Source of the DNA: Antedon bifida
Taxonomy: Eukaryota > Echinodermata > Crinoidea > Comatulida > Antedonidae
NCBI GenBank assembly: GCA_963402885.1
Contig: OY727102.1
Location: 1,860,001 to 1,924,000 of the forward strand
Length of the DNA stretch: 64,000 bases
Direction: 5' to 3'
The position numbers and the translations under genes are program-made. Numbering within the stretch: position 1 is the first letter of the stretch; each line of letters begins with the position of its first letter. Positions 14,917 through 63,679 of the stretch are shown here, in pieces. The notes under the pieces are model-generated. The model was not told the origin of the DNA. It was given only the letters and a program-made list of their open reading frames with translations, and made no database searches.

Positions 14917-17900
14917 ATGGGATATTGTAGATTAATTGGAAATACAGCAGTTTTACTACAAATTATATGTTACGCAATAAATGCACAGAATTCAGGTAGG
15001 GTTTTGCAAAATATTATCAGTACTATTTTTTAAGATCACGAAGAGCAGATGTGGTATGTAAAAGTGCTAATACGCATTGTGACTGGATCTACACTGAATA
15101 TCGGGCTACATTTTGGCTTGATCTAATTTTGGGTTTATCAGGACTAGCAGAAATAGTACGATATAGCCTAAATGTACCTTACATTATACAGTATTTATTT
15201 CAGTGAACCTTTATTTCATTTGCTAGAAAATTGTGTGAAAGTGAACATTGTACTATAGGCCTACATAGTAAACCAAAGTGTTTCTAATACCTTGATATAA
15301 TAGGCAAAATTTTAAAACAACATCTACTCTTGAGCGTTATTAATGATTTTTTTTCACAATTATCTAAGTCAAAGTGACGAATTAAATTCCAGTTCATTTT
15401 TAGAATTGTCCAAAAGTAATAATAGCATATTAATTGCCCTACAGTACTGTACATTAAATCCAAAGTTTCCAGTACTTGTTTTTACTGTACTGTACAAAGT
15501 AAACTGTAAAACATCTGAATAAATAATATCGGTGATATGAACTGCCGTTGGCATAAACATGGAAAAGAGACATTAGATTTAGAAGGACGTCGTGAAAAGG
15601 TAAACAGATTATCTGAAGAAATTGCCAGATACATCTACTAATCATTGGTTATTTTTTTATTACTGAATAATTCGATATACTGCATTTATTATTCTTATTT
15701 CTGTTATCGTCATGCAAATTAATATCCCTGACATACCGATCTGTTGAATACAGTATACAATATTCAAAGTTGGTATCTTTGTGAGTGAAGGAATAGTTTG
15801 ATCGAAATGTGTACAGTTAATGTTTTGTATTTACAGGAACTATACTTTTAGTTTGTGTAACACTCCAAATAAAAAGAAAATTAACTATAAAAAGTGCTCG
15901 GTACAACACTTCAATCTGTCTATTCTTTTTATTTCAACAATTTCTATATAGTTTGACAGCAATAAAATGTTGATAAAATGCGCTGTACTGTCAGGTACGG
16001 TATTGTTTTGACAGTGATCACTCCTATTGTTGTATCAAAATCTATAATATTGATTGCACAAAGATGAAAATTATGTTTCGGAAATGTAATCAAACAAAGC
16101 TGTATGCATTTGACAACACGTTAGAGACTTGGTACTATACAAACACCTGTAATGTAAACAAAAAAACAACCTTACCGTAATAGAGATAGTATTAAATAGA
16201 TGGCTATAACTACTGTTTTAAATATTCGAGGTCACATTTAATTGTGTGGCTATTCTCAGGGTTTTTTTTTTTTAAATTATTAAATTTCCAACTAATGTTA
16301 GTTTTGCATTTTCTTTAGTGTACAGTAGGCATTCTATTTTCGGTTGCTTCGTGTGAATTTAACTGGAAGAAGGAGTCAACTAATAATTATAGTTTTAGGT
16401 CCGTGTGGTAGACAAAATCATACAACAGTACTGTACGCCTACAGTACAGTACAGTACGTTGCCAATGTAGTATCAATCTTCTAGTATGTGTTTTTCATGA
16501 ATTTACTGTATCTCTCAAATGATTTTCTATCACATTCCTATGGTGCAATAAAACAAAAGATTAGTGAAGTAAAAGTATTTCTGAATATTGTCAAAATATT
16601 ACTTCCTTAGTTATCAAAGGTATAGTCATATCCAAAGGTATTCTTGTAACAATCGGCTTGATGAACCGTAAAATATTTCTAATAATGATAATAATTCTGT
16701 ACATGAACTGAAGCGTGAGTATCTAATCAGAACTAGAATTCTATATTCGCCATTTTCAACTCAACAATGTACGTTACAGTAACTAAATATCAAACCCGAA
16801 ATAGTGGTTGATACAATATCACAGCAAGTCTACAATTACAGTAATGAAATTCGCCAATACCGTCTTTTGAAAGCAAAGTATTGCTGTTTATGGAATACTG
16901 TAGCTATGTTATCGTACATATTTTATGTTCAACAAAGAAAAAAAAACCAATTGTTTCGAACCGTTATGTTATTACCAGAATTCTAGAGTTAAAGCAGTCA
17001 CACTAAAGATTTGTAATATAAAATTTGCTAGGCCTAAAATACCTTTACTGTACATAATAATAGTGACAGTTTTACGTATTTTATAGTGCTAAAATCGATA
17101 ATTTATAACTCAACATTGGCATTTTAATTTGCCAATATCCGTTTGTATTTGTAATAATCCGTTATAATAGGATATATCAAATGGTCTACAGTTGTTTACT
17201 GATTACTGAACTTAAGCATTCTTCCTTCTGCGATTACAGATTTTGATTATCTTTTTAATTGTTTGAATTCCAAGTAAGGAAAGTTAATCGTAAGTAATCC
17301 AAATGTAAACTATACGTACTGTAACTTTGAATTCCATTAGCTTATCAATAATCGCACTAAATCCTGCTTTTCATAGATGTATTAATCAAAACTAGCTATA
17401 AGTTTAACAAGTATTCAATACCTGTATATACTGTAGGCCCTAATATAAAATATACATTTTGGAATATTTTTACTAATTATTTTCCTTGTAGTTTTTCACA
17501 ATGTATAATTAAGAGAACAAAGAAAATAATGTGCTGGTCATCAAATCTTAATATGATTTTCTAAAAGTGATAAGTTAAGCTCTGTCTACACTATCAAAGT
17601 AATTTGACAAAAAATGTGATGTAACCAAATATGGTAGTGATATGCCCAAATATGGTAGTGATATAACATCATCGTGTCCATATATGGGCACATTTTTTGT
17701 CACATACAGTTTGATGGTGTAGACCGAGCTTAAGAAATAGCACGTTATGTGTCGGTGTCACGTGGACAGATTTGTGGATTGTCCGTTTTTAACATTTTGT
17801 CTGTTCTCGTTTGGCGTAACTTGCCATGTTTTGTATTTTCAGGTGACGTGCGGTTACAGGGGGGATCTAACATATTCGAAGGTAGAATTGAAATTTATGA

Positions 17901-20900
17901 CACCACTGAGTGGAAAACAGTATGTTTAGATAATTTCGGTATTGTCGACGCTGATGTGGTATGTCAACAGTTATTTAAACGTAAGTACATTATCTTGATA
18001 AAGCAATACGTTTGAATACTGCAATTTTTACTATTCATATGTTGGAACAACTTAAAATATTAATGCTGATATTTCTTATGTTCATTAAAGGGTTCTTTTA
18101 AATTTGACAATACACACAATATTATTTAATATACTTAATTAATTACAGAAAGTGCAATATCAGTAGTAGATGGGTCACAGTTTGGGGCTGGGACCAGTGA
18201 TGATTCACTAACTGGAGTAGCATGTACAGACACTGATACAACGTTACTAGGTTGTTCTAATTCTGGGTATTCAAATACATGTAGTAACCATGCAGGTGCC
18301 AACTGCCAAGGTAAGATATTTGTAGTATTTTAAATAAATGTTTATAATTCAATTCAACTTTTATTTCAAACAAACAGTCAATATGATACAGCACATATAA
18401 ATGAATAAAAACAAAAGGAAAGACATTCTATTCTGTAACAAACATCACCAAATGATGAAGGAGGGTGGACCAAGAATTATCCGTTGACATAATTAGTACC
18501 TCTCTTATTTGTAATAGTTTCTGGAATCCATCAATATATTCATGTATACAATTGTTTTGCTTGTCATTATTCTGTCAAGAAAACATTGTATTTATTTATT
18601 ATTTCCTATGATTCTAAACTTAACCGAGTGATAGCTTTTAACATGTTTAATGCAATATTTTACAAATGACACAATTACTTGATTACCATACAGAATGACG
18701 ATACAAATTAGATGAATATATATTGTGTAATAAAGTTTGTAACTTTGTTTTTGTTGTTTAGTTTTTGGGTACTTTGGCTGCTATAACAATGCAGTGGTGA
18801 TGCCATTACAAGGACCATTACTTACTGGCAAGGTAGACTTGACAATATCTAGTTGTATCGAATCTTGTCGAACTCGCGGTTATGTGTATGCTGGACCAAT
18901 AAATGGGGACAGATGCTCGTGTGGAAACACAATTGAAACACCTCATGTCGAGGAAAATCTGGTTTCAGAAACATTTTGCAATGTAGCCTGTTCAGGCGAC
19001 AGTTCACAGATCTGTGGTGGAGACGTTTACACTAGTATTTATACATGTAAGTCCAACTTTTCTACAATTTACCGTTTTCTTCCTTTTATGTTATTTTTAT
19101 ACTGTATATTATAATTATAGATTGAAAACATGTATGCACTTACTTATACTGTTTACAAAACCGGTTAACAATTTGAATTATCAAATAACAATTCAAATCT
19201 TTCTCAATTGTAGCTTCAATCGGACAATTTGAGGGTACATACACCCTACCGGAAGGCTTTGTATATTCTCCAAACTTTCCAAGTTCCTATTTAGGAGAAT
19301 CAACTTCATGGATGCTAACTTTTGAAAATCCAACAATTACTACGGTAACAATCTGGATGTTTGACGTATCAGAGAATGCTACCTTGGTGCTTACGTCTGG
19401 GACTGGTACCCGACAGTCGTATTCAGGCTCAGAATCACTCATTCTTCCACACGTCTGGACTACAGACCTGACGTCATCACTTGAAATCCGAATTGGAAGT
19501 ACTACAACGCCAGAGATTAGTAACGGATTCGTTATTACATATGAAGGTTAGTTATTTGACAGTTAAGATTATATTAGAAGATCTAAAATATTGATGACAT
19601 TTTATTTAGTAAAATTAAATGTTTTCTGTTAAAGACAAGGTCAATTTCCTCTTGGTAAAACGAAGAGTGTTATTCCAATCTTCCCTGGTCAAAGACAGTT
19701 TTTCAGCAACAGATTCCCTTCCCTGATTATTACAATGTTTCTAATATCAACTGAAGTTGATGTAATAAATGTGGATGGTCGATAACATTTATTTATAAAA
19801 AAAAAATTGTATCGTGTTTCCTAATATGCAAAAATACAAAACAGTACGGTAATAAAAATGGCTGAGAATAATATTTATATTTTTGTCCTCTATAATCTAG
19901 CTGTCACCGGAAGCTGTGGTGGTGATTTTGGAGGTACCTTGGGTTACATTGCATCCCCTGATTATCCTGAAGACGTGCCTTCTTCGAGCGCGACCTGCAC
20001 ATATTCCATTACAGCTCCGGACAATTACATCATCATAGTGGAACTCTTACAAAGATCACTGCCTAGTGGAAGTTCATTGGTATTGGTTGATGATGGTGTG
20101 ATTAATAGTGTAACAACTATCGGAACGTTTGCTCCATCAACTACCAATATGGTTTCTGTTACTTTCGTTTCTAGTGCTTTGTCGCCGTCTTCATTTCTCA
20201 TTAAATACACAGGTTAGTTAACCTATTTACTCTTTATATAGTAAACGCAGTTAGTCTATAAAGTTTAATAATGCCATATTTTGAAGTATCTTTCCTTTTG
20301 CACTTGTAACAGAAGACAGGAGCCACCGGAATTAGAATAATATTACTGTATAAACAAGAAGTTATTTCACTCTTCCTAGATTACACCATGTTATGGTGTA
20401 ATGGTATAACCAGTTCTAATCTGCTATACTGTTGCCCAGTCATATATTATAAATGAATGCTACTACTTTGATGAATGACTGTAAAATAATGTCAGTACAT
20501 GTTCCTATCAAAACTATATATAATACCCGTAGATGTATTGTAATTTCTAATATTATTCCATTGATATTGTGTATTGCTTTCTTTTATTTGAGTTGTTGTG
20601 TATTTATTGCACACCTTTGTTGAAAATATTTGTGACGCGTTACCAACATTCCTGTTTAGTTTAATAAAAGTATATCTTTCTATAGCTTCTCAAGGTCCGT
20701 CTGACGCGTTACAAACATTCATGTTTAATAAAAGTATATCTTTCTATAGCTTCTCAAGGTCCATGTGACGCGTTTCCAACCATCCCGTTTGGCACACTAG
20801 ATCCAAGTGTAACTGGTACAGTGTATCGGCCTACAACGGTGTCATTTACTTGTGATGCTGGCTACTCATCGTCAGACAGTTCTGTAACCTGTATGGAAGA

Positions 20901-23900
20901 CGGCTCATGGACGTCAGCAGAATGTACAGGTAACAATGGAACGTGTTTAGAATGTGATTGATTTGATTTAATATCAAATTAGAATCTTACCCAACATTAG
21001 GTTAGATTTAAGTCATTGCACTTGATATGACTTTACCAACTATAGACTATTAGTATATTCCTTGTAAATCATGAATACAGTAAAACCAATTTTATTGTCA
21101 TTATATGTAACAATAATATTTCAATTACACGTGCACTCACACTCCTTCTTTGTTGTTTGCTGTATCTTTTATGAAACTATGTTGTTTCAGATTGTTAATA
21201 ATAATGTAACCATGTTCTCAGTTAATTTGTGTTGTGTTACATATTGTGCTGTATGTCTGTCTTTCTGTTGAACGTAGTTAATTGTGATGCGTTGCCTACT
21301 ATTATGTCTGGTTCTATTATTACGGGTGACGATACTGTATTTAATCCGGGTGAACAACTAAACGTGAGTTGTGACGACGGATACACAGCATCTGCATCTA
21401 TGATCACGTGTTTGAACGACAATTCTTGGACGACAGTACAATGTATTGGTATGTTGTAATACTACGCCTCGACTTAAACTAAAATTGTTTAAGCCATCTC
21501 AAATGGCGTAGACAATACTATCCAGTAAAGCTTGGTTCCCACTATAGAGACCAAGCAAGTTTACCAGTAACAATCGAATCGAAAATGATCCATCGCCTGT
21601 GATTTATCAGATCACGTACGTTGCGCGTACGCCCTTGTGTTGCGTCTGTAGCGATCAGCACATGCTGAGATATGAACCATAATCTATTATTAATATAACC
21701 ATACATGTATTATTGCACTTTCCCGATACCATTGTCAGTTTAGTTAGATTAGTACTGTATGTTGATGCACTGTTCACACTTGTGTTGTCTTTCCACGATG
21801 AGTATTCCCTTTGTAACAATACAATTATATCTTTATGCATGTCTTTGTAGAAGATCCACCAACCACAACAGAAAGTACAACTACAGCCATAGATGCCACT
21901 ACTCAAGCTGTCACCACCGCTCCAGATGTAAGCACGGCTGCTCCAGGTGTAAGCACCGCTGCTCCAGTTGCAAGTACCGCCACTCCTGATGCAAGCACTG
22001 TTGTTGCTCCTGATGCAGACACAGTTACAACAAAGACTGTAACTACTGATTCACCATCTACTACTGCAGCTGGTGATCAACCAACTGAAGACGCAGATAG
22101 TACGACTGAAGGTTCAACAACAGTGAAGTCCACAACCCGATCTGAACAAAGTCAGTTTTGCTTATTACGATAGCATGTCTCATTTATAGAAACAATGCTT
22201 TATTTGAGTGTACTTAACATTTATAGTCTGCTGGTCAAATAGACGACCTTTCTAAGCAAACTAGTCACCCAGTAATACATATATATATTCAAAATTAAAT
22301 AATGAAGAAAGTTTCGATTATCACAAAATGTAATTAGCATACACCTGTCTACACGACGCACGAAAGAAAGATGTTTAATATTTTTACTAAAATTAATTTA
22401 GAAGATGTTTCTTTTTAGTATCGTGACGCATAAAGCAATGTTATAACTAACAACTTGTTTAAATTTTGTTTTAGCTTCAGATTTATGTCGAGTCAGCCGA
22501 GATCCTATAATGCAAAGCTTAGATAATGTAGAATCTGCTAATATTTTAGCACTAAATGTTGGCAACCCGTTAGACTGTGAAGGGTATTTGACCGGTATAG
22601 AGATCTTCAGTATAGACACATCAACGGTTACCATCAGTGTACTAAGGGTATTTGATTCAGTTATTTTTCAGAAAAATAATAGGCTTAGCTCATATACTAA
22701 ATAAATGGTTTATTTTTTAAGTGTAGGTATTAAAAAAACATACAATAAGCATTTAATTTGGTTTTATTAGTTTTTAGAAACGAATAATTACCAGCTGATT
22801 GGACGATTTGAAGTTGTTGGTGTGACATCTGATGTAGTAAAACACTCGTTGCCTGCGGATGAATATATTCGATTTGAAAGCGGTGATATGATAGCAACGA
22901 GCTCCAGAACATCTTCACCATTGACTTATTCAACTGATGAAGATTCGGTAGATTATATGATATGGAATATCACAGGAAATGACGTCTTTCACACTACAGA
23001 AGTTGAAAATGTGATACGGTTGACAAGCACAGACGACAGACCAAAGAGAACTTACTCATGGGCTGTTTTCATTACAGGTAGGTATTTTGGTATAACGCAT
23101 GCGCAAAAACAAAACGCAGTAGTTACTTTTATTTGTCTAATTGGAAGTTTAATGAACATTTTGCGCATTCTCACATATTTCTAAAAGGAATATCATTTAG
23201 ACCTGATGCTACGTACTTTAGGCTCATCGATGAAGGTCATACTATAACAACTACCGTTTTACATGTAATGAATAACTTTGCAAAACTATATTCCTAGTAG
23301 ATAGAGTAACTGTATGGACTAATTTGATCGATTGAGTGATACCATATTCATGCGTATTGGCACGAGAATAGATTAGAATAGATTAGACATTGTTTTATAA
23401 TTACAAATTTGTCATGTATCAGCATTGAAATATAAATATTTTGAACATAAAATAAAATAACTTTTTTAACAGTTAATCTGACGACATGCAGTAAGCCAGA
23501 CATTGATAATGCTGTGATAACACCAGACATGGAAGTGTACCAATATCAGGATACGATTGAAGTTAAATGTAATGATGGCTACACTCCAGATAGCGCGAGG
23601 TCACTGCAATGCCTCGCGAGTGGTTCCTTTGAGAGCTTTGAATGCACTGGTAAGGCTCTTCTTTACTCAGTATATGCTTTACCAGTAGACCGTTTTTTTA
23701 CAGTTCAGTTGAAGCTTTAAAATGAAAGTGCAAACTAACGTATAATTGGAATGCCATTGTTGTTGCAATACGCATATGTCTCATAAATAGATTCTCTCAA
23801 AAGCCACAATTAACAACTCTTTTTTGTTTTATTTCAGAAAAAGATCGACACACATTTTTCATTATATTCGGTAAGACTAGAAAGAAAAATGATAATAATA

Positions 23901-24607
23901 TTAAATTCAGATAGAATGTAATTATCAATTTACAATATACAAAACTATCACAATAAGGTAAACACTAAAGTACAACCAATTATGAAAAAAAAAACCACTT
24001 TTCCTTGACAATATTTCTTGATTTTTATCCGTTAAGGTATTGTTTGTGTCGGTGTGTTTGGTCTACTTACAGTAATTTCTTTAATAATGATGGTATGTGT
24101 AAAAGAGAAAGCACCTGTAAGGACAAAACAACCAAAAAGAAGGTAAAATCGTACTATAAATGTGTTTTTATAATAATTATATGTTAAATATAATTGTATT
24201 TACTGTGTTAGAGGTACTGTACTAGAGAGGAGGAACTACTACATGACTACCTTTGTATAAACAAAATATATTTTTCTTACAGTACATTTGTATCAAATGG
24301 TAGCAGTCGATCAGACAATTCGCAGAGAATGCTGATACCCATAGAATACGACAACGCACGAGGTAAAGGAGTTGCTGTCAGTAATCCAATACCAATAGCT
24401 GATGAAAATCCCGCGCAATTAAACGATCTTCAGTATCCACCGATCGACTATCCTTTGGATGACGTAAACGAGGCCATCCAGGCGATCGATGAGGCAGTGC
24501 TTGGGTTTGACGTTGATAACTTTTCCCTCGCTGAATCTGGCCCAATGGATAACAGGTCTGGAGGGGACTCTACTAGGCATCACGTCACATTTTCAGATAG
24601 GAGATGA
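14917..24607 (+). CDS. Gene A: SRCR-WSC-CUB-CUB-sushi mosaic receptor, type I membrane
   Basis: Exons: 14917-14995, 17843-17980, 18149-18310, 18762-19046, 19214-19546, 19901-20212, 20750-20929, 21278-21448, 21851-22150, 22475-22647, 22771-23077, 23473-23649, 23839-23871, 24037-24142, 24283-24607. The sum is 3081 nt, 1026 residues. In order they encode: a signal peptide; an SRCR domain over two exons (VRLQGGSNIFEGRIEIY, VVCQQL); WSC (GCY, CSCG, SQICGG); two CUB-like domains; two sushi domains (each ends SWT..CT); a Thr/Ala/Pro stalk with APDVSTA-like repeats; an unnamed beta-rich module; a third sushi; a 33-nt microexon; TM (IVCVGVFGLLTVISLIMM); and a ~120-residue tail with IEYDNA and LQYPPI. 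Nearly all ectodomain exons are phase 1-1. AATAAA at 25904 may serve polyadenylation. Recognition or adhesion at the cell surface is inferred from the domains. Confidence 0.85.
14996..17842 (+). other. Large first intron of gene A
   Basis: A 2.8-kb phase-1 intron from the donor G|GTAGGG at 14995 to the acceptor TATTTTCAG before 17843. It contains one MITE copy (17579-17729). No further exon with domain similarity was found on either strand. Confidence 0.6.
17575..17733. mobile_element. TTAA-flanked MITE, copy 1
   Basis: Element 17579-17729 (151 bp) with terminal inverted repeats GCTCTGTCTACACTATCAAA / TTTGATGGTGTAGACCGAGC. TTAA directly flanks each side, as for piggyBac-type insertion. The interior has three perfect CArG boxes: CCAAATATGG at 17625 and 17646, CCATATATGG at 17678. 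It lies in intron 1 of gene A, just upstream of the SRCR exon. Confidence 0.85.
20634..20770 (+). repeat. Tandem duplication of a splice acceptor and exon start
   Basis: GACGCGTT begins at 20634, 20703 and 20767. The first two copies each continue through TATATCTTTCTATAGCTTCT, the polypyrimidine tract and acceptor, then CAAGGTCC. The real sushi exon of gene A starts at 20750, using the second acceptor. The upstream acceptor at 20685 would add 64 nt and bring an in-frame stop. Confidence 0.85.
22475..23077 (+). other. Unnamed extracellular beta-rich module in gene A (2 exons)
   Basis: Exons 22475-22647 and 22771-23077 join in phase 0, unlike the phase-1 joints elsewhere, so they form one unit of about 160 residues. 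The pattern C..GYLTGIEIF..TVTISVLRFL, then YQLIGRFEVVGVT, then IRFESGDMIA resembles a widespread but loosely described jelly-roll-like module of metazoan extracellular proteins (…VWRP…LVG…v.pGD.IG…). The similarity is from memory and not tested. It lies between the Thr/Pro stalk and the last sushi. Confidence 0.5.
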
Positions 24608-26663: not shown

Positions 26664-29600
26664 ATGCATACTCTACTAGTTATAACCACTACCTTATTTT
26701 GTGTTCATTCTGGTGCAGCAAATATAATAACGAACTATGAAGGTTGGTGTCTTGAAGTTGTTTTTGGGAAGAAATAGTTAGATAGAATAAACTAGTACAC
26801 TTACCTTATACTGTGTGTTTTACACTACAATAGGCCTACAGAATATGGTTAAGAATAGCAAAACCTTAACTTGAATTTCAAATTAGTTTTAGCTTTCTGG
26901 TAACATGTAGTACAAGAATAGGCCTACTGGTACAACCAGTATTGAAAATTAAAATGAGTGTTTGTTTTTAGTTGGTATTGGTATTAAACTGAATTAAAAC
27001 ATAACATTATGACATGATTACAGGGCTGTGTCTATTTTTATAAATTTAAATCACCAGGCTTATAATGTACAATCACGTCACAGTATATCTGTCAGTATAT
27101 AACATGAGGTATTCAATAACAATTTGGATTATATTGCGTTATTCCTATAACTTGTCATGAAAATAAAAACGTTAGAAATTACTGGTAAAAAGGATGTTAG
27201 TAAAGCACCCTTAAAATTGGCAACTTAACTTTGCCGTATTATTGGGAATATTTTTTTATAATAGATTGAAATGTTAATATTTATTATTGTTTCTTATGAA
27301 CAGAGGGGGACATACGATTAGCTGACGGTCCGAATCCGTTTCAAGGGCGTCTTGAGATATATCATAACGAATCATGGGGAACGGTTTGTTCAGATGGCTG
27401 GAACGAAAACAACGCACAGGTGGTATGCAGGCAGTTAGGTAAAGATGACTCACAATGTTATTTTTAATTTTGCATTTGATTATAATAAGAAAATCATTTT
27501 TGGTAGTTTCTATGATTTAAAATCTGTCTTTCGAGACTTTATGTTTGTAAGACTCAGGTACCAACCTGGCCTTGTCTCTCCAACAACATTTGAAAGTATT
27601 CAAAACATAATAGAAAATGTTTAAATGATAAATAAGATAAATAATACATACTAATATTTTAGGAATCACACTATTAGAAATGGTAACTCTAATTAAAGAA
27701 ATTATTTTAGGTATAGTATAAGAACAATCATAATCCACACTCTTATCTACTAAAGCTCTTTCTACACTATCGAACTAGTGTGATGTGACCAAATATGGCA
27801 GTGACATGCTTAAATATGGTAGTGACATGCCCAAATATGGTAGTGATATGACATTTGTGTCACATAAACTTGATAGTGTAGACATAGCTTAAAAGGTATT
27901 TTGACCAAAACGTGAATGCTTTGGCAATTCTTAAATAATGAGTATAATTATTGGCCTATTTCTATTTATATTTTTCAGGATTTCTAGATGGAGTTCTTCT
28001 AGATAACGTGGTTAACAAATATCCCGTCACTTCAAACATTAATATATACTTATCGAATGTGGTATGTGATGGGTTAGAATCAGCATTGACTGAATGTCAA
28101 TATAACGGCTGGAGTGTGAATGGGTGTAATCACGAACAAGATGTGAATGTTTACTGTAAAGGTAACGTATTCTTCCCCCGTTCATTTATAATTATCTTGT
28201 AATAACCAATTATTTTTAATTTGTTTGTAAGCTAAACTTAGTTATGGTTTTTATTTAATTTTTTTTGCACTAAAACTGCAGTAGGCCTATTCAAAAAGGA
28301 ATTTATTTAAACCAACATGATACATATTTCTTCTTTCTTTCTTTCTTTCCTCTATGATGAAAACAGAATATGCACAAAAACCACTAAAAACTACTATTCT
28401 TTCCACATTAGACTTAAGTGAAAATTATGCATTATAATACTCTAGAAGCCTACGCAGATGAAATGGAATAGTTTAAATAGAGTCTACAATGAAACGTTTA
28501 TTACAATCTTTAAATAACATAATTATACAATATGTATTAAGCTCTGTCTACACTATCAAACGTTATGTGACAAAAAAAATGTGATGCGCCCATATATGGA
28601 CACGATGATGTCTACCATATTTGGACACATCACATTTTTTTTTCAAACTAGTGTGATAGTGTAGACAGAGCTTTAGACAGTAAGATAAAAACGGTACCAA
28701 ACGATAGTAATTTAGTTTGACTTTTTTAGTCCACAGTTACAGAGGTTGTTTTGTCAGTGAATTTCCTAACTACGCTTTGACTGGTAAAGAGGTTGGAATG
28801 ACCGATCCATTGAAGTTAGAAAGGTGTATGGAATTGTGTGATGGTTACGACTTCATGGGTGTGGAAGGAGGTGATTCATGTTTTTGTGGAAATGTTGCGG
28901 ATGATTACACAAGGTATGGAGAAGTGGTCGCGAGTGAATGCACCCTACCGTGTGAGGGCGATAGTAAGCAGTTCTGTGGAGGAATAAGTCGTATAGCGAT
29001 TTATGAGCGTAAGTGTCATGAGTTACCGCTGTATCCCTTCTCCTTGCCTTGAGCACGTTGTGGATATGTGCGCTTTATAAATCTTATTATCTTATCTTAT
29101 CTTCTATAACAAATGCAATAAATTGTTTTTGAAAAATGAAAGAAAGACAACTATATATTATTTTGACTAGGTTAACCGTACTAAATAAAAGAATAGCAGC
29201 AGTAAGTAGAAAGGAGAACTCAAGGGAAAATCAATACATGTAAGAAAGTCCCCATAAAATATCATTTGATACTGATGTACCATAAAACACGGTAAATAAG
29301 ATACAATTAACCGCCATTTTATTTATCGAAACTTGATCAATACTTTCTTTTTTGTAGGCTCTACTCATTTTCCGTTTTATAATGTTTGGGGAATTGTAAT
29401 AATTATACTATAATACTATAAAAAGTGAATACATATGCTTTACCTTATTTGAATTAAAGTAATAAAATAAGTAATCAAATTACATATCTTAAATTGTAGG
29501 CAATTGTTTATCAACAAGTGCTTCCAGTGGTGTATTACTATCACCTAGTTTTCCTGGCCAATACAGTATGGATGACCGATGTGAGCAGCAGACAGATTTA

Positions 29601-48364: not shown

Positions 48365-51300
48365 ATGGCGAAGGCAGGTACTTCCGGAAAATTATATTTT
48401 ATAATTCTGTTACATATATTTCTATTACACATATCGTTACCAATTTGTGATTGTAACAGTAAGTTTTTAATTATTTGTACTGTTTTACCACTGTTATAGG
48501 CAAATGTATTGTGATTGTAGGATTGTTACGGTGTTTCATTATGGTGACTGTACTCTTCTGAAGGTCAAAGTGACAGTGTTTCTTAGTTATCTTGGGAGAT
48601 CCAATGTTGGTTTTCATTTTTCGTAATATTTAAATTTCATAAAGTTCCCTCGGTTGAGATAAACTCATAAAATCTTTATATTTAATAGTAATTTTATTCC
48701 TAATAGTATAAATTTTAATCATAATAGTATAGGCCTACATTATTTTATTCTGAAGTATAAATTTATTATCATTATTGTATACCATTATGTATTCTAAGAG
48801 TCTGATTTATTCTTATTTTTTTCAATATAGCTTGTGTATATCCTGGCGTACAATCAAATGGTAACACTCTACCATTCCAAGCGTCGTTCCAAATCGGAGA
48901 AATAATTACATATATATGTTATGCAAATTACGAACTTGTAGGTCAAGTAAATTTAACATGTCTGGGTTCAGACACCTGGGATGCAGGCTTCCCGACATGT
49001 GTCAAGATATGTCCAGAAATTACATTTCCAAACACGCAGATTATAGACAGTAACGTTACGTTAGATTACGCCAATGTTATCGGAGATGTCCTTGTGTGGG
49101 GATGTGAAGACGGTTACTTGTTAGATCCAGGGCAAGAGGACACACAGACGGTTACCAGATGCAAATTATTAGGATGGGTTACAGAGACTGACGTCATCAC
49201 GTGTTCTAGTAAGTAGGCCTACTGTATTCCCACACTTAAACTATGATGAATGTATATTTTCCGAACCATTAATAATTAGGCCTACTCTTCCGTGGTTCAA
49301 CTCTAAAACAACTAGGCCTGCAGTCTTTAAATCGTAAAATATACATATAGAAGGACATTCAGTAGGTTTTGATACTGGTATGTATCATTATTATGATATA
49401 ACCTACCTACGTGTATTACTAATATTACTCTTACACTCAGCTGGTTTGTATTATAATAAATGGTAATTGCAGCCCATTATGCTGCTGTACTCAATATTAT
49501 TACATTGTATAGTAGTGTACTATTTGTTAGACAAATTCGGAGAAATGTAGTGTACGTTGTACAAAAGATTAAACAATGTATTATGCATGATGATCGATAA
49601 AACATCTGAAAGTAGAATGAACTTTTCATTTTAGTCTTTTCTACGTTTACGGATCTCTTGTTTTTTTTTGCGGGTAGTCTTTTTATTTTATTCTTAAGCC
49701 TTAAGTAGACATATTATTAACTCAAATTCTGATAGGCTTATTGTTTATTCGAAATAATATTTGTCCAAGATCTTCAGAGAATTTGAAATGTGTACTATAC
49801 TGTAGAATTGCTATTGGCTACGAGTTCTGTAGCAGAAAGTATTCAAATGGGTTATTATACAAATAAGAATTTCAAGGTTTTGACTGTTGTTCAAGATAAT
49901 CCCCCTTCCATTTCTATCAATATGTATGAATTACACCAATGTATGTTGAGTAAGAGTCTACTTAGGGGCCTACAATAACTTATCATAAATATTACTGCTG
50001 CAACACACTAATATTTTAGAAAATGAGGGGAATTAGGAGTGTCGGACTATGGAGAAGGTGTGTGGTGTTAGTTAAAGATAATGCTACTTGCATGTCGACT
50101 CGAGAGTGCCATACGTTTGAGACAATATTATTGCATGTCGAGTAGGCCACAAACTACTGACATGATATGTTGAGTGTAGATGGAGTGTAAGTGTCCTATT
50201 TTAAACTCTTAATAGTGAGTGTATAGAGCCAGGTATTCAATACAAGTACACCAAGACCTGTTAACTGAGATTGAGGCATGAAATCCACAAAAATATTTGT
50301 TGTTGGCAAAAGGCAAAAACAGTCCTTTGTGTTAAAACTAAGGCTTTTGGTTTGTGTAGAATTCTGTTGTTATGCTTCAATGACCCATGCCTTTCTTACA
50401 AAATAAGGTTCATAAAATCAAAGGGTATTTTTTAATACCACCCATTACACCTTCCTTTTATAACAGTGGTTCAGTGAATTGATAAATACAATACAACTAT
50501 GTATTCTAAAATTAATACAATACCATTATAGTTAAATTTTAGCTTTATTCGAATTATTTGCATGGTTCATAATAAAAAAATTAAATTAAACTGGTTTAAA
50601 TTGATGATAGTAAAGATGCGCTAAGTCTTGGCTTACGATGCTACTTTAAAGTCAAGATCCATACATTAGTATAATTTATACATAAAACTTTATTAATTTG
50701 TAAATATTTCTAGAATCTATAACAAGTAACGTTTCCTTACAGAAATATCTTGTCCTGATCCAGGAATTCCTATTGGGTTAGAGAGAGAGGGCAACTCGTT
50801 CTTATTTGAGGATGTTGTTACCTTCTCTTGCTCCAATGCAGATGATGTCATCAGCAGTGGGTCAACATCAAGAGTATGTCAATCGAATGGCACATGGTCC
50901 GGGTCAAACCCAACTTGTACAGGTAAGTGTATATATGTTATTATTATTTAGATAAAGCGTAACACAACTATTATAAATGTCATAAAAATAAACCATAATA
51001 ATGTGTAGCCACGTAATACTGTATGAGTCTTTTGTCTGGGAGTGCAAAGATAATAATTTTCCCGTTTACTAATCTATGACACACCCAAATGCTTGCCATA
51101 AGTGATTTGGTAAAAGTCTTTTCTGATCTTAATAGAATGTAGACATTATAGACTGTCATCCAGTAAATGGACGTTACCTTTTGCCTAGGCTTCATACTAA
51201 ACATATTTGTTTCATTATATGATAGATGTCAGTTGTATGGATCCTGGTAATAATAATCTTACCACAAGAACTGGTGATGATACATTTAAATATGAAGCCG

Positions 51301-53668
51301 TTGTGACGTATGAATGTGTGGAAGGTGCTATAAAGGTGTCTGGATCAGAGTCTATCAACTGCCAATTGGACAGTACATGGTCTGGAGAACCTCTTGTATG
51401 TAAATGTAAGTGATATTAAAAATGCCTCTCAGTAGCTTCATAACACTTTGACTTTTATCCTCAATTTTATCGAATAAGGTATACATACATAGTAGATTTA
51501 AATTCTATTTCTGTTCATGTTCTAGGCCTGTAGCACGCCTTTAGTCATAAAATATTGTTAATGAAGTTCTCTTAATTGCCTTTAGATCCAGCAACTACTC
51601 AACTACCTACAGACCTCGTGCCAACAACAAGTAAGTTTAGCCTAAAGATCCTTTCTCCTTCAATCTTATATCACCAAACTTGTTCCTCGATATGTTCCAT
51701 TTCGTTGCCTTCACTCCTCTGACAAATCATTGCTATCTGCTCGGTACTCAGATTTACAGAGGACAATTTCCATTTGTTGAATTCTCTCTTTGTAACGAAC
51801 TCACAACTTTTGTCAAATTCACAAACTTTTAATTCTTTTATAACTAATTTAAGTAGTAGACTTCATTATGGCATGTTGTACATCTTGTTAATTAATCACA
51901 TCAGTACCTTTTAGAATTACAATCTTGTATTTTATTTTTTTTTATTTTACTGTAATACCACCAACTGCTTATCTTTATTATCTGGACTATTTTTGCTAAA
52001 TTGATATTAAATATTATTTAATACGAATCCTATATTCAATCTGTGGATGATTATGTTTGAAAATACATTGTATACATAATTATATATGAATTTACTTAGG
52101 TTACATCGATGACATTTCTACTACAGCTTTATTTTCAAATACTACTATTATGATGCCAACAACAGACAAAGAGTCCGAAGTCTCTGCACTACCAAGTAAG
52201 TTCATATATTTTTAGATTTCTATATTTACATTATTTTGAGCGGTGGTAAGCTCCCTCTCCTATATCCAACTAACTTTACTTTCCAGTTTTGGAATATTTA
52301 AAAAAAAATGATGATTATAATTATTATAATTGTTTATTAAACGAATTCGTTTGACCATTTTAAATTGCATTTCCTTAACATTTGCATAGATTAACTCATC
52401 GGTCTGCTACAAAAACCCGTCCGCATACAGTTTTCCCAAATGATTTTCTCTCATGATTTTCTCTCAAAATTCGATAGATAGGCTATTGCTATAAAGCTAA
52501 TGTTTCCTAAAAAATAGAATCTAAATATAAATGAAACTATACGTATTCCCTAAATATAACTCTCAACTTAAAAAAACAAACACACAACTTATAGTCGATG
52601 GTTTATAATAAGGTAATAAAACAGCAAAAAAATCACTCATTGTTTCTTTTGAAAGACATTTTTAAAATTTTATTTTACAGAAAGTATACTCTATGCGGCC
52701 GCACTCGGTGGTTCTTTAGTGTTCGTGATTTTGATTGGCTCAGCAATTTGCATATTTACAAGGTGAAGTATATCCTACTCGAATGTTATAATACATTACA
52801 ATACGGAACTATGACACTTTCAACTTTTAACAATTCAATCCAAAATGTTAATGATTAAGTATATTTTACCTTGAATTCCTTTCATTTTTTATACTGTATA
52901 TGACATATGCTGTATGTTTTGTAGGTAGTTACCTTTTTGTAAATGTGTGTGTACTAATGTAAATTACTTTGTTAGTTTTGGATTTTATTTGGATTATTTT
53001 TATTATATTGTTAATGTTTCTCTACTGAACCACTTAGGAAATCAATGCTTTAGCACTGAAAGCGTCATTCAGTATAAAGACAGAATAAATAAATTATACG
53101 TACGATATAGTTTAACTTAAACTAGACACTTACCGTCATAAAACTAATCAATTTAAAAACAATATTAAAATGGGGTCTAAAATGTTGCGTCTTGGTCTTT
53201 ACCAAGACCAAAGGGTAATACGACCGACCGAAGTACTTCACACACAAAAACAATAACAATAACTTTAAAATGATAGGTATAAATGTATTTTAAAATTTGG
53301 CTATGTTTTGAAAAGTAAAATATTAATATTAATAAAACTATTATCAATATTATATTTTTAGTAAACCGAAAAGGTCCAAGCCAAACACACATCAAAAAAC
53401 TGATTGGGTACTTACGGCTAGCGTAGACGAAGAGGAAACCGAGGCTATCTATGACCTACCTGATCAGAAACCTCCGTATATCGAACCTCTCAAACCCGGT
53501 CAGAGACCGGGCCAGAAACCACCATACATCGAGCCTCTCAAACCAGGACCTGAAGGCCAAGTTCTAACTAAAAACGACAGTGTGCGAAGTGAAGGGTCGT
53601 ATATAACCCCAGAGGAGTTTGTTTCAATCGAGTATCAAAACGTGCCAGAGGTTTTGACGAGACTCTGA
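48365..53668 (+). CDS. Gene D: four-sushi receptor with stalk, TM and proline/tyrosine tail
   Basis: Exons: 48365-48458, 48831-49208, 50743-50922, 51226-51405, 51586-51630, 52100-52195, 52681-52762, 53362-53668. The sum is 1362 nt, 453 residues. Signal peptide: LYFIILLHIFLLHISLPIC. Exon 48831 carries two sushi domains and the next two exons one each, with the C...C...C..C pattern and W before the last Cys. Two tiny exons give a Thr-rich stalk (PATTQLPTDLVPTT). TM: YAAALGGSLVFVILIGSAIC. The ~100-residue tail has AIYDLPDQ, an internal duplication of QKPPYIEPLKPG, IEYQNV (ITIM-like and Grb2-type YxN) and a C-terminal LTRL. It resembles gene C without WSC. A candidate polyadenylation signal is at 54349. 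Confidence 0.85.
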
Positions 53669-53694
53669 AAAAGGCCTTACGTTGGGTTCCCGTT

Positions 53695-55830: not shown

Positions 55831-55917
55831 CAAGATGGCACACAAACATGACGAGACGTGTTAATAAGAAAATAAATAATTACGTACAGATGAGAATTTT
55901 GTGAGAAAAAATATAAC

Positions 55918-55985: not shown

Positions 55986-56939
55986 TAAACAATAGCTGTT
56001 GTTGTATGAACACAATACAACGTGATAACGTATTGAACAAGCCTAATCAAAGCGTCAAATTGTTAACAACGGTTTAATTAATTTTGCCTCAATTTTAGTA
56101 ATTAACTGAGTACTCTGCTGCTGTAACAAGTGCGGTATGTAGTGTGAATCAACCATACTTCTGTAAAATGAAAATAAACCCTGCTGCTGCCACGCCTGAT
56201 GCGCATGCGTACGGCAAACGCGTCTGTGAATTTACTAAGCAGTACATGGACACAACAAAGAGCGTATCCATAATATTATAAGCTACTTATCTCAATAAAA
56301 GGATTATCTTTTTTAGAATACCAACAAGTAAGTACTATTTTTGTTAAATACGAAAATACCGACATTGTTAATGGATTTTGTAACCGAGGTTTAGTAATGT
56401 TTATGCCTTACAGGAGCAAGTATAGTATTAGCATATAGGGCCTACATTTGATACGGGTAGTTCATTAGGATATTTTGATATATCGGGGTACTGTAAAATA
56501 TAGGCCCAATGTAACTTATTAAACGTATGTATAGGCCTACTACCATCCAAAATAAAACAAAAGTTTGAAGATGAACAAAAGAATGTATTGCCTCAGTTTC
56601 AATGGAAATTGTTTATTGTCCACCTATTAGTGGAGTAAAACATTTGTAACTAAGTCAAAATTAGAATGTTACATGTTTTCTCGTTGCCATTATAAATAAA
56701 TATATATTAATAAAATGAATTAAATGAACGCTGAAAAGTACGCGTTGGCAAAATTAATTTTATTTTGTCTTTTTTATGTTACTACATTAGATATTAATTC
56801 GATTAAATCTGTCATGCGTCACTTGTAACTAAATTGTTTACTAAAGGCCCTTATTTGTTTTATTAGAACACTGAAGATGGAATAAAATCATTGAAGCTAG
56901 TTTGCTATCTCACATTTGTAGAAGAGAATACACAATGTC

Positions 56940-58844
56940 ATGTTGCTTATAGCAACAAGATGTTTGTTGTTCATGGATGTCTATCTATTATTCTTGAAAC
57001 ATGGTGAGTGGTTTATACATTTTTTCGTACTTTTCAAAATGCATTCACACATACATTAATTAATGTTCTATAATATCAATTAAAGATTTTCAATGATTAG
57101 CTAGGCAGGAACATGATGACTATTCACTATGACACTTGATGAAACTATTAAAGTTATACACGTTTATACACATGCAACCAAGAATCATTCAAACAAAATA
57201 TATAAATCTAAAAATGCGATGATATTTTAAGAGTGAATATTTTTTTTACAGTGACGCCGGAGATGACAGATGTGTTGAATTTAAATGTAACGTCAATTTC
57301 ACATACAACACCGACATCAACTAACTTTACCACTCACAACATGAGGGCTATGGCGTCATCATTGATACTGGAAGAGCAAAACATTACAGACAACACGAGC
57401 GTAGTTTTAGATGTTAATATTACAAGGTCGACTTTACCATCAGAGGTATCTTCAGTTCAACCAACTTTATCAAATATTGAGAACATCAGGCCTCCTACCG
57501 GTAGGCCTACTTCTGTGGTAGCAATGACTACGTTCAGTCGAAATACTTTAGAAAACCACACTGACTATGCGTCAAACGATACAAGTGAAAACTCTTCAGA
57601 TAGCACGATGACGTCATCATCAAGTAAAAACGGCAGCAAACTTATACTTACAGAACTATACTATAACCTGACACACGGTGAGACAATCACTTATTCTGAC
57701 ACTCCTGTTAGTAGGCCTAGCACTAGGCCTAGCATCACGTCTTCTTCACCATATCCGTCAGAATCAGACAAAACAACTACTGACTTCATTTCCACTATTA
57801 AATTAACAGAAGAAGAAGCAGGCTCTACCATCACTGGTCAGAATAAAAACAATTCTTACGATGAGAGAAAAACTCTACAGTTTGAAGAAATAAAAACGAC
57901 TTTGATTGATGCCACCGTGACGAAGACGACTAACAGCTTAAACATTATTTCAACAACAGGTAACGGAATTTCAGCAAGAATAATCAATGTTATTTAGAGT
58001 CACTTTTAAATAATTATAATAATAATAATATAAATAGAAAGGTTGTTGTTTTGACATGAAGTCGCAAATATTAGAACCTCGACAACGAAAGCAATCTATA
58101 TTTTCATTTCATTCTTCATTTCAAGAATATTTTATTAAATTTTAATAATTGCAAATAAAAAGACTATTATTGGGTATCTATACTAGAAGAAACACTTCTA
58201 TATTTAAAGTAAAACAAATATTTTCTTGCATTTTCAGAACAGAAAGTGGAATCTGAAGATGGCTACCACATTAGTAATTATAAATTTATATATTATATTG
58301 ATTTACTTTAATTCAAAATGTAGATTACATAAAACAGGTTTTGTTTATGCTATGGAACATACTGCGGCCAACTCTACCACAACTCGAGCGAAAGCTTTGC
58401 ACTGCACAAAAATGACGGTGTAGTATAGGCAAACTACGGATATAAATTAGTTTATAAAAATATAGTTTATTTATCATATTGCTTTTATTATTACTTTGTA
58501 ACAGATGATGTTTATGTTCTGTTGGCTATATCACTGGTTATCATAACAATCTGGTTATTGTTGGCCTTCTTTCTGTACATTATTGTATGCAAGTAAGTAA
58601 TAACACAAATTGCACAATTATATTTAAATAATGGTACGATTATATCAATATTAGGACACCGTTCACTAAACGTAATCATGTTACATTTATTTCTGTTTTT
58701 AGTCGAGTTTCATCAGGCTGTTCAACTCATAGTAGTAAATCAAGAGGTGTATACTCAAATACAGCACATGTTTCTGTAGTGGTTGCCACAGAAGAAGGCA
58801 TTTTTGATGATGACGGAATTGAGATTCTTCGCACGGCTTTGTAA
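56940..58844 (+). CDS. Gene E: mucin-like stalk, TM and short tail
   Basis: Exons: 56940-57003, 57252-57959, 58505-58592, 58703-58844. The sum is 1002 nt, 333 residues. The start ATG was chosen because it opens a signal-peptide-like MLLIATRCLLFMDVYLLFL in the frame that splices correctly; exon 1 is the weakest part of the model. Exon 2 is a 236-residue Ser/Thr/Asn-rich stalk with many NxS/T sequons and no cysteine-rich domain. TM: VYVLLAISLVIITIWLLLAF. The ~50-residue tail has VYSNTAHV and a C-terminal RTAL, a class I PDZ-type end like genes C and D. It lacks all ectodomain modules. A possible extra exon starts at 58238 (after TTTTCAG) but its donor is weak. A candidate polyadenylation signal is at 59046. 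Confidence 0.7.
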
Positions 58845-60347: not shown

Positions 60348-63300
60348 CTATTTGGACATAAACTTGGGTTTAAATTTGCCGCCACTTGTTTCGCTTTCCA
60401 AGTGACCTATTGGTTTCCAGCCATCTGATTCATCGATTCCATTGGTTGTTGGCTCAACTTCATTTTCTTCGGTCATGTCAAACCCGTCATTTGTCGCCGC
60501 CATTGGCGGTTCAGCAAACCCGTCCAGGTAAGTAGGGTTAGGGATTGCTTCAATACTAGTAGTCTCTTTCAAAGGATGTTTTGTCTTTTTCCTAATTTTA
60601 TACAAAATAATCAAGAATTAAAAATATTTAATTGTTGTATTATATACTGCAATTTCTTGTTAATTCTGGAAGATTTGATTGATTTTTTTCTGTTAGTTAG
60701 TTTCGTTGTTGTTGAATATTTCAGAGGCGTGGGTGCGGGGTGCAGTTTATGAGGACCTAGCAGCTCTATTTTTCAAAATTGTCTTAGCTCAGCCCAACCA
60801 CTTGTCTTATCTCCAAACTGTCATAACAGTTCGAAATATTGAACAGACATTTATTATAATAAAATGTATGTAGTAACAGCAATTAAATTAAATGCTGTAA
60901 AAGAAAAAAAGAAAATACGAAATTAAAATGTAATTTTGTGATTACTTACTTTGCTGCAAGTATGTACGTTGCTCCTAAAATTAATATTATTAACAATAGA
61001 GCTGATATTCCAATAACTATGTACATCATCAGCATATCTATAAAACAAAATTAAGAATATGTGGTTACAAACAAAGTACAATTGTAAATTATCTAATCTA
61101 AATAAACTTTTTACAATAATGTTATACCAGTAATTAGATGTATGCCTTCCGTATCTATGACAAAACAAATTACATAGAATTTCAAATGACAAGTATATCT
61201 TAGACGGAAAATAAACAACCCAACTTCACAAAAGAACTAAAGCATGGACCCTCTATCGCGCATGCTCGACTGACTACTGGCAGTAGTTATTGTTATTGTA
61301 GTATTTAATGCATACTGCATATTACGTAATCCTGGTGGTTACGCCACCAGTATGCAAATTAGGTACGTCATTCTGAGGGATAGTAATTATCTGTATTGAC
61401 AGGGTAAGAAGAATGTGAATGAAGCCGGAAGGTAAATCAACAACAATCAACGCAGAAGAACTATATTATTTGTAAGTAAACGTTTCTGAATATTCGTTAT
61501 TCCATCAATTGCCAAATACCTATAGGAAAGTTTAAACTAAACGACATACGTCGATACCACGAGTTTATTTCTGCGATTTTTGAAATTCGAAATAGGCCTA
61601 CGATATGTGGTAATTACGATAAGTAAGCTACAACAATGTCTAACTAAACTTTTAACAACATAACGACATTAAGTTATACCAGAATCGCTTAAAATAAACG
61701 TTTAAGTTGATCTTACGCACATAATTGACCGTCGGTATAACAGAAAATGGAACAGATAACTTATCGGTTTTTTTTATTTTATAGGCCTAAATACTAATCT
61801 AAATGTTTACACAATAATTTTCAAAATAAATACCTGATTCTCCATCAGTCTGGGCAGCATTCTGACTTTTACCAGCTGAAATTTAAATAATGATATTATT
61901 ATAAGTTCTGTATCGTGTATTATAGCCTAGATGCTGTACACACATCATCATAGTTTAATGTTTATATATATAGTTTATTATAGAAACAATGCGTGTTTAT
62001 CCTATTGAACCTTTTCAGTATGTCTCTGTATTTAAGCATATCGTGTAATTCCTTCTCCCAGATTTATTATTATCGCTGGACGATTTTCAGTCGAAAGAAT
62101 ATTGCTTAGGATTAGGCCTAATAAAACATCATATTTAGTTAGTATACTTATAGTCCATCAAACTTACTAGTAGCGGGTACTGCTGTTGACTTTGCCTGCG
62201 TTACCTCCTCATTTGATGTTGATGTTTTCATAGCTAAAAAACACAATTATTGAGAAAAGTAAGTAACGATTGCGCACATACCAGTGACGATGGTTAATAA
62301 AACTTTATTTTATAATCACAGCTACACAGACAAGCCACAAATACTATCCAAAAACAAATAATTTCCTGACGCAAAATTAGTTATTTGTAGACATTTACAA
62401 TTAGCAATTGACATGACATTTTGATATCAATTTTTCAGATTATTAAACAATAAATATACATTTACACCTGTTCCGATTTACGGAACGGATGACGACATCG
62501 TTTGTAAAATGTACCGTTATTGAAAATCGGAACCGGTGTAAATGTAACGTTTGTGCGAAAAGAAGGAAATGTGTTTAGAGAAAAACGACCACCATGTTAA
62601 TCATCAATCACTTACTATCACTTGTTAACTTAGTTTGTAAAAGTGTTGCTAGTAGGGTGTCAGTAGTTGTAGGCCTAGGCGGTAATGTTGTACGCATCAG
62701 CGTTGTAAGCCTTTGTGTAAGCTTCTTCAGCGTTGTCAAACCTTCTGTTGTTACGTGATCAGTTGGAGTAGGCAGTTGGGTGGTGGGGCTTTTCGTCGTG
62801 TACAGGCGAGTGGTAGGTGGTAGAGTAAAGTTCTCAGTTGTAGGATTATGTGCTATTAAAATATATTTGGTGAATTCACAATAAGATACCACAACCGTGC
62901 AAAAACAAATACTAAATACAGTCTACTACTATATTTGCAGAAAGTAAAACGCATCCTCTTGTTTTATAAACACATAGGCCTATTGTAGAAGTTAATTTAA
63001 ATTAATTTACTTGAATATTGAACACAAGGATGTATGCATTGTACTTTCTTATTGAATTGTTATTAAACCACACATAGAAAAGGTGCAACTAAATTGATAT
63101 GCATGCTTTAGTTTCCCACCAATCTTGAGATAAAATAAATCGTGTGAATTTCACATCTAAACTTACTTGTGATTGCTTCAGATGTTGGTTGAGGGATTTC
63201 TAAAAACAAAATAATAATATATTCAATATCGCAATGCAATCTCACTAACATAATATCAAAGTCATATGGCCATGTAGTTTGTGCTTCTATCACTATTCCC

Positions 63301-63679
63301 ATAATTGGAAACAAAAATCATTGAATATGGTGTCGTCATGATATTTAAAGTATACAGTATTCTCTATTTAATTGGTCTCCGTCCGATATTTCAATTTCAT
63401 TTACTTTGTACAACTTTAACTTCATATTATACTTTATATTTCGGTGTGTAAATATAAACAAAAACAAACGATACAATATATTTTTTTTTAAATGGTACAA
63501 ACCTGTACAAACTATTGGTTCTCCAGACCAAGAGGTATTAGTATGGCAAGTTATCATTGCGTTCCCGCCTGTCTGCTCGTATCCCGTCATGCATTCGTAA
63601 GTAACTATTGCTCCAACAACATAACTGTCGCCAGTTCGGATTGAAAACTCAGAATTTGCTGGTTCCCCACACGTAGAAA
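60348..63679 (-). CDS. Gene F (3' part): sushi, stalk, TM and NPxY tail
   Basis: Exons on the minus strand: 63679-63503, 63199-63167, 62852-62616, 62233-62168, 61875-61834, 61037-60950, 60591-60348. Phases agree throughout, and the 5' part lies beyond the window. The first visible exon is a sushi domain (STCGEP…YECMTGYE…TSWSGEPIVCT), close in wording to the fourth sushi of gene D (STWSGEPLVC). Four small exons give a Thr/Pro stalk (TTRLYTTKSPTTQLPTPT). TM: MYIVIGISALLLIILILGA. The tail of about 80 residues contains IPNPTYLDGF, an NPxY motif, and ends KPKFMSK without a PDZ ligand. It is inverted relative to genes A-E. Confidence 0.8.
62459..62545. mobile_element. Small inverted-repeat element in intron of gene F
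   Basis: ACATTTACACCTGTTCCGAT at the left is mirrored by ATCGGAACCGGTGTAAATGT at the right, about 85 bp in all. The ends are typical of a tiny MITE and unrelated to the TTAA MITE family. Confidence 0.65.

What the first reader, a model, noticed from the sequence alone, without database searches (positions are those of the whole stretch)
14917..63679. Cluster of six related mosaic receptors with nested domain architectures
Seen: six adjacent single-TM genes whose ectodomains form a series: SRCR-WSC-CUB-CUB-sushi(3)+extra, SRCR-WSC-CUB-sushi, WSC-sushi(4), sushi(4), stalk only, and ...sushi. Known: SRCR, CUB, CCP and WSC are carbohydrate- or protein-recognition modules common in echinoderm immune repertoires. 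Inference: one ancestral receptor duplicated in tandem and lost N-terminal modules stepwise, giving a possibly undescribed recognition or adhesion family. This is the best candidate for a new system in the window.
Basis: partly seen in the sequence, partly recalled or inferred. Interest (0 to 1): 0.75.

Follow-up and report, generated by a model that had tools for sequence, protein, structure and literature searches.

The report
Feather-star mosaic receptor gene cluster
A feather-star chromosome carries a row of six old, single-membrane-pass receptor genes built from the usual echinoderm recognition modules, each with its own intracellular tail; the row is real and partly kept between species, but it is a new member of a known kind rather than a new system.

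Summary
The window is from a crinoid close to Antedon mediterranea. Five genes run on +: A SRCR-WSC-CUB-CUB-sushi2-stalk-extra domain-sushi; B SRCR-WSC-CUB-sushi; C WSC-sushi4; D sushi4; E Ser/Thr stalk, with no signal peptide found. The sixth, F, lies on the opposite strand and, read past the window edge, is WSC-sushi10, not "...sushi". A. mediterranea orthologues of A, B, C, D and F support the models and lie on contigs of one and the same length; Anneissia japonica has A, B and C likewise. In six of six the last transmembrane exon reads phase 1 to 2 and one tail exon follows. The proposed history, one receptor losing N-terminal modules stepwise, is only partly supported: the four WSC domains resist being one clade (AU p 0.035; 0.003 if F's copy elsewhere is kept out), and sushi exons prefer other cluster genes over 35 outside repeats in only 12 of 22 cases. 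Relatives lie at C15 1.48-1.51 Mb and on C11. I read two or three older subfamilies. Three of seven tails carry NPxY; C, D and E end in T-x-L. Best guess: surface recognition receptors coupled to uptake or scaffold adaptors. No immune evidence.

The parts
14917..24607 (+). Gene A: signal peptide 14917-14995; SRCR 17843-17980 and 18149-18310; WSC 18762-19046; CUB 19214-19546 and 19901-20212; sushi 20750-20929 and 21278-21448; Thr/Ser stalk 21851-22150; unassigned domain about 22477-22650 and 22778-23077; sushi 23473-23649; small exon about 23838-23870; TM 24037-24142; tail 24283-24607
   Evidence: Pfam on orthologue P0005 and window; tblastn of P0005; splice phases. The small exon was read by eye from an ORF against P0005; the end of the first exon of the unassigned domain is approximate.
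26664..32033 (+). Gene B: signal peptide 26664-26738; SRCR 27304-27438 and 27979-28161; WSC 28730-29008; CUB 29502-29814; sushi 30110-30292; linker about 31070-31165; TM 31522-31603; tail 31853-32033
   Evidence: tblastn of A. mediterranea P0013; Pfam on P0013; splice phases
34120..45667 (+). Gene C: signal peptide 34120-34189; WSC 39999-40319; two sushi in one exon 42301-42702; sushi 42988-43164 and 43721-43894; stalk 44001-44387; TM 44633-44717; tail 44980-45667 ending VTRL, with NPIYE
   Evidence: full-length 94% match to A. mediterranea P0001 and 52% to Anneissia P0002; tblastn
48365..53668 (+). Gene D: signal peptide 48365-48460; two sushi in one exon 48831-49208; sushi 50743-50922 and 51226-51405; stalk pieces 51586-51630 and 52105-52209; TM 52681-52762; tail 53362-53668 ending VLTRL
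   Evidence: tblastn of A. mediterranea P0014, named membrane cofactor protein-like by its source; the first stalk piece is from splice prediction
57252..58844 (+). Gene E: Ser/Thr-rich stalk 57252-57959 (35% S+T, 11 N-glycosylation sequons); TM 58505-58592; tail 58703-58844 ending RTAL; 5' end not found
   Evidence: ORF and predicted splice phases, composition and ORF chance; no homologue tested at full length
60351..63683 (-). 3' part of gene F inside the window: last sushi 63504-63683, stalk piece 62166-62231, TM 60949-61038, tail 60351-60593 with NPTY. The gene continues outside the window to 76939 (window numbering): WSC 68143-68496, two-sushi exon 67568-67975, seven further sushi
   Evidence: tblastn of A. 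mediterranea P0016; Pfam on L010; sushi scan

Best explanation
An old crinoid gene cluster of type I single-pass membrane receptors. SRCR, WSC, CUB and sushi modules outside the cell bind glycans or proteins, a Ser/Thr-rich stalk lifts them off the membrane, and a gene-specific tail couples binding to PTB-type endocytic adaptors (NPxY) or PDZ scaffolds (T-x-L). The genes form older subfamilies (A/B; C/F, with D and perhaps E attached) kept side by side, rather than one receptor shortened step by step. Shown: anatomy, orthology, linkage in related crinoids (from contig lengths). Inferred: ligand classes, adaptor binding, uptake or scaffolding, and any role in defence or adhesion.
For: Orthologues of A, B, C, D and F on A. 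mediterranea contigs of one length (22,273,604 bases) and of A, B and C on Anneissia contigs of one length (419,248 bases), so very likely one contig each. The same 3' layout in six of six genes and in a related gene at C15 1.51 Mb. Tails 93-100% identical between the two Antedon. In the whole-genome searches with genes C and B the tails matched only themselves (only 59 of 117 and 86 of 385 candidates were scored). NPxY in 3 of 7 tails (0 of 20,000 shuffles reach three) and PDZ-type ends in 3 of 6 (19 of 20,000). SRCR of A, B and three loci elsewhere lie in two exons, the cut near VVCxQL(G); at a fourth locus only the first half was seen.
Against: Motifs were chosen after seeing the tails, and the tails of E and of the C15 1.51 Mb gene rest on my own models. 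Between A. mediterranea and Anneissia the tails of A, B and C (58-69%) are no better kept than the domains (46-70%), so special constraint on tails is not shown at that distance. No expression, ligand or adaptor data. WSC trees have long branches; a shared exon phase can arise independently and its background frequency was not measured.
Confidence: 0.5

Rival explanations
1. One reading: one ancestral receptor with all modules duplicated in tandem and descendants lost N-terminal modules in steps.
For: Nested architectures; shared 3' exon layout; D looks like C without WSC; D and F share a last sushi exon (139, reciprocal best); B's only sushi is nearest to C's first (90). SRCR linked to a long-type WSC on C11 (L029) offers a plausible ancestor for C and F. 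One clade of WSC-linked SRCR domains is not rejected (p 0.142).
Against: WSC one-clade test: p 0.003 without and 0.035 with F's copy. The two-sushi units of C, D and F score 74-100 with each other, within the range of 60 pairs from three outside proteins (medians 75-99, maxima 126-168). Over all 22 cluster sushi, other cluster genes beat outside repeats of this genome in only 12. Order and strand do not follow the series.
Confidence: 0.25
2. Complement regulation or complement reception: D, and perhaps F, bind C3 fragments as membrane cofactor protein and CR1 do; the neighbours are unrelated in function.
For: D has four sushi, a stalk, TM and a PDZ-type tail, the layout of vertebrate membrane cofactor protein (recalled); its orthologue is named membrane cofactor protein-like by its source.
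Against: Sushi repeats occur in many non-complement proteins; the published regulatory motif pattern (PMC6683126, passages seen) could not be tested, the passages giving the motifs as logos only.
Confidence: 0.15
3. Cell-cell or cell-matrix adhesion or junction receptors scaffolded through PDZ proteins, without a defence role.
For: One orthologue per gene found in the related species, unlike the large SRCR expansion reported in sea urchin (PMC10855680); C, D and E end in T-x-L.
Against: A, B and F lack such ends; no expression data.
Confidence: 0.3

Closest known systems
Echinoderm SRCR superfamily mosaics (sea urchin SRCR proteins that also carry WSC, CUB or sushi; PMC10855680)
   Same: Same modules in SRCR proteins: 36 WSC, 38 sushi and 35 CUB domains are counted in sea urchin SRCR proteins (one section read).
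   Different: Here a few genes with private tails and apparently one orthologue each; that paper's main text has no hit for crinoid or Anneissia; architectures were not compared one by one.
Membrane cofactor protein (CD46) and other regulators of complement activation
   Same: Gene D: four sushi, stalk, TM, short tail with PDZ-type end (the CD46 layout is recalled).
   Different: Regulatory activity untested; its neighbour C has WSC plus four sushi, which is foreign to that family (recalled).
DMBT1 (automatic name of Anneissia gene B)
   Same: SRCR and CUB domains.
   Different: One SRCR, a WSC and a TM; no zona pellucida domain was reported by Pfam.
CSMD proteins (automatic name of F)
   Same: Many sushi repeats and one TM.
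   Different: No CUB domain in F; alternating CUB-sushi is the CSMD hallmark (recalled).
NPxY clearance receptors (CED-1/Draper/MEGF10, LRP; recalled)
   Same: Type I layout with NPxY in the tails of C, F and the related gene at C15 1.51 Mb.
   Different: Ectodomains are of other modules; no adaptor binding shown.

Membership tests
SRCR superfamily, group A (genes A and B) | SRCR fold by profile | tested here: met
   PF00530 on P0005 (58.2 bits) and P0013 (95.8 bits), cut-off 26.1
SRCR superfamily, group A (genes A and B) | six cysteines and two coding exons (definition recalled) | tested here: met
   six Cys read from the sequences of A and B; two exons each; intron near VVCxQL(G), phase 1
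Regulators of complement activation (gene D) | tandem sushi repeats on a membrane stalk | tested here: met
   sushi in P0014, 90 bits, three stretches passing on their own; TM and tail
Regulators of complement activation (gene D) | ordered five-motif pattern over three repeats (PMC6683126) | not testable with these tools
   the passages seen give the motifs as logos only
Regulators of complement activation (gene D) | C3b or C4b binding or cofactor activity | not testable with these tools
   needs protein assay
DMBT1 (gene B) | zona pellucida domain with several SRCR and CUB (recalled) | tested here: not met
   one SRCR, one CUB, no ZP among Pfam matches of P0013 and P0015
CSMD (gene F) | alternating CUB and sushi (recalled) | tested here: not met
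   no CUB match in P0016 or in the minus strand of L010
One tandem family of the six genes | shared modules form clades against the rest of the genome | tested here: inconclusive
   WSC one clade rejected, p 0.035 with F's copy and 0.003 without it; sushi 12 of 22; WSC-linked SRCR one clade not rejected, tree unresolved (p 0.142)
One tandem family of the six genes | same TM-tail exon layout | tested here: met
   six of six (E by splice prediction only); background frequency in the genome not measured

The most novel reading that the evidence does not exclude
A crinoid receptor set kept as a linked block since before Antedonidae and Comatulidae parted (shown for A, B and C), in which ancient paralogues hold different recognition ectodomains and private conserved tails that split the downstream response: uptake through NPxY (C, F), scaffolding through PDZ (C, D, E), other tails (A, B). 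It would act as a fixed, combinatorial recognition panel rather than an expanding immune repertoire.
Probability: 0.2. Interest if true: 0.5.

Novelty: new member of a known kind. Interest (0 to 1): 0.33.

Why it matters
[quoted passage not shown] A block of mosaic receptors with one orthologue per gene and private tails is a contrast to the 357 SRCR gene models reported for the purple sea urchin (PMC10855680, passage seen), and gives a small, testable set for asking what these modules do outside such expansions.

Tried and rejected
Own-genome COX1 search for taxonomy got no answer; taxonomy came from protein matches instead. Structure prediction of A's orthologue failed (mean pLDDT 29.5), so no fold search was made and A's extra domain stays unassigned; Pfam (best E 0.013, below cut-off) and PDB sequence searches (best E 0.61) gave only chance-level matches for it. 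The SRCR tree with 12 outside SRCRs was unresolved; three one-clade tests were not rejected (p 0.142, 0.085, 0.201). Those 12 were picked from the 82 outside rows, a list that favours single-exon domains, so a split-exon contrast with the rest of the genome would be biased and is not claimed. The CUB tree (10 rows, 9 different) was not decisive. dN/dS was not possible (no A. mediterranea DNA). For the WSC AU tests three long rows of 31 were dropped, one of them the WSC of the C15 1.51 Mb gene. Of 35 genome WSC matches, 26 lay in loci that I had fetched and went into the tree, one of them cut by a locus end; nine did not. The 63 outside sushi turned out on recount to come from three proteins of other or unnamed sources only; I therefore repeated the test with 35 repeats of this genome. 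These were chosen from hits to C's sushi, which favours them against C; of the 20 stretches fetched for that, 14 gave a repeat by my pattern. The low identity (77%) of the extra domain comes from my wrong exon boundary there, and C's third sushi was not measured there. HRM matches in C are below cut-off and read as sushi overlap.

Full report
What it is. The genome (G000, 315.6 Mb, 27 contigs) is that of a feather star close to Antedon mediterranea: gene C, modelled from the window alone, matches an A. mediterranea protein over its full length at 94%, and the tail of gene A is identical over 108 residues. The window is C15:1860001-1924000. The species itself was not determined.

The genes. Five genes lie on the plus strand and one on the minus strand. 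A: signal peptide, two-exon SRCR, WSC, two CUB, two sushi, Thr/Ser stalk, an unassigned domain of about 160 residues, a third sushi, TM, tail. B: signal, two-exon SRCR, WSC, CUB, sushi, TM, tail. C: signal, WSC, two sushi in one exon, two more sushi, stalk, TM, tail. D: signal, two sushi in one exon, two more sushi, stalk, TM, tail. E: Ser/Thr stalk, TM, tail, with no 5' end found. F: on the minus strand, leaving the window; complete it has WSC, two sushi in one exon and eight further sushi, stalk, TM and tail. The module exons are bounded by phase-1 introns. In six of six genes the last transmembrane exon reads from phase 1 to phase 2 and one tail exon follows; orthologue proteins bear this out for A, B, C, D and F, while E rests on prediction.

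Conservation. A. mediterranea orthologues of A (P0005, P0006), B (P0013), C (P0001), D (P0014) and F (P0016) are each listed on a contig of 22,273,604 bases; Anneissia japonica orthologues of A (P0007, LOC117123027), B (P0015) and C (P0002, LOC117123028) are each listed on a contig of 419,248 bases, and an F-like protein (P0004) on one of 209,089. That these are single contigs is inferred from the equal lengths. In the WSC tree the Anneissia F-like domain joins F (98/95) and the copy at C15 1.487 Mb falls outside that pair (88/90), so that duplication looks older than the split of the two genera. D was not listed for Anneissia, where only the 7,994 candidates sharing most words were scored; E as modelled is below that search's length limit. 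In the three protein searches every match at E 1e-3 over most of a gene or of its query part came from crinoids; the others were partial matches to sushi or WSC proteins.

Is it one family? For WSC, 26 domains of this genome (of 35 matches) and five from orthologues were put in a tree. The four cluster domains need four changes of label, as many as shuffled labels (mean 3.9). Holding them together with their orthologues is rejected (AU p 0.003; 28 of 31 rows used), but that test forces F away from its near copy at C15 1.487 Mb; with the copy included p is 0.035. C, F and the copy together are not rejected (p 0.341). For sushi, of 22 cluster repeats the top match is in the same gene for 8, in another cluster gene for 5, in F's copy for 3, in other genes of this genome for 1 and in outside proteins for 5; between other cluster genes and 35 outside repeats of this genome it is 12 to 10. 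The strong links are F with its copy (201, 116, 169), F6-F7-F8, A1-A2, and the membrane-proximal repeats of D and F (139). A genome search with C's two-sushi exon puts exons on C7, C16 and C11 ahead of the other cluster exons. For SRCR, 82 of 89 rows of the search with B lie outside the window; a tree with 12 of them is unresolved and does not reject one clade of the WSC-linked SRCRs (p 0.142). So the data show no single recent series; an old common origin is neither shown nor excluded.

Relatives elsewhere. At C15 1.48-1.51 Mb lie an F-like gene (WSC and a two-sushi unit) and, on the minus strand, a gene with two-exon SRCR, WSC, CUB, stalk, a phase 1-to-2 TM exon and a tail with NPLY. On C11, SRCR exons precede WSC at 20.50 Mb (with CUB), 20.70 Mb and 21.49 Mb; where both halves were found (20.50, 20.70) the SRCR is split like those of A and B, and at 21.49 Mb only the first half was found. 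The family is therefore wider than the cluster, and an SRCR-WSC core from which C and F lost SRCR is possible but not shown.

How it may work. The five genes with complete models are type I single-pass proteins with recognition modules on a stalk or linker. The tails share no obvious sequence, and in the searches with C and B they match only themselves in the genome (capped lists). Between the two Antedon the tails are 93-100% identical; between A. mediterranea and Anneissia the tails of A, B and C are 69, 58 and 68% identical, while the measured folded domains lie between 46 and 70%, so the tails are conserved but not specially so. NPxY occurs in the tails of C, F and the C15 1.51 Mb gene (3 of 7; 0 of 20,000 shuffles reach three). 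C, D and E end in T-x-L (3 of 6; 19 of 20,000 shuffles reach three); the motifs were picked after looking. D in A. mediterranea ends in LTRF. From established knowledge (recalled) NPxY recruits PTB adaptors of endocytosis and T-x-L binds PDZ domains, so uptake and scaffolding are the likeliest outputs. Ligands are inferred from the module types only; the WSC papers listed concern fungi or plant-microbe contact and were seen as a search listing with the starts of abstracts. Defence is possible but untested; one orthologue per gene differs from the large SRCR expansion reported in the sea urchin (PMC10855680: passages and one section read).

Verdict. The cluster is real, old and at least partly conserved. 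The modules and their mixing are known from echinoderms; no paper that the ten searches listed describes this set. New member of a known kind, modest interest.

Noticed in passing
window 8416-9967 and 12776-14354: Two satellite arrays with units of about 366-373 bases whose consensus units look, by eye, like reverse complements of each other.
   Followed up: no
window 17625, 27789, 38231, 39633 (minus), 47342: A 21-base repeat (CCAAATATGGTAGTGACATG type, 9 matches with up to 3 mismatches, mean 0 in 100 shuffles) sits in introns of genes A, B and C and upstream of D; it may belong to a dispersed mobile element.
   Followed up: partly
window 1-9990 minus strand; about 83-87 kb in window numbering (L011, L012): An amiloride-sensitive channel (ASC/DEG-ENaC) gene lies upstream of the cluster, and a similar reading frame lies downstream (by eye; not confirmed in the three frames scanned), so channel genes may flank both sides.
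   Followed up: partly
L009 (C15:1850413-1852002): A single open frame for a protein with NHL repeats and a RING-like finger (below cut-off) upstream of the window.
   Followed up: no
P0004 (Anneissia japonica): The NCBI model of the F-like protein contains, between sushi repeats, a long stretch that looks by eye like a retroelement gag-type protein, so the model may be a chimera.
   Followed up: no
C12:9802393, 9810702, 9820662: Three similar partial WSC matches, each with one TAG inside, 8 and 10 kb apart: possibly broken copies.
   Followed up: no
gene A, P0005 against window 21274-21447: The A. mediterranea orthologue (isoform X1) has a sushi repeat twice where this genome's cluster gene shows one exon.
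   Followed up: no
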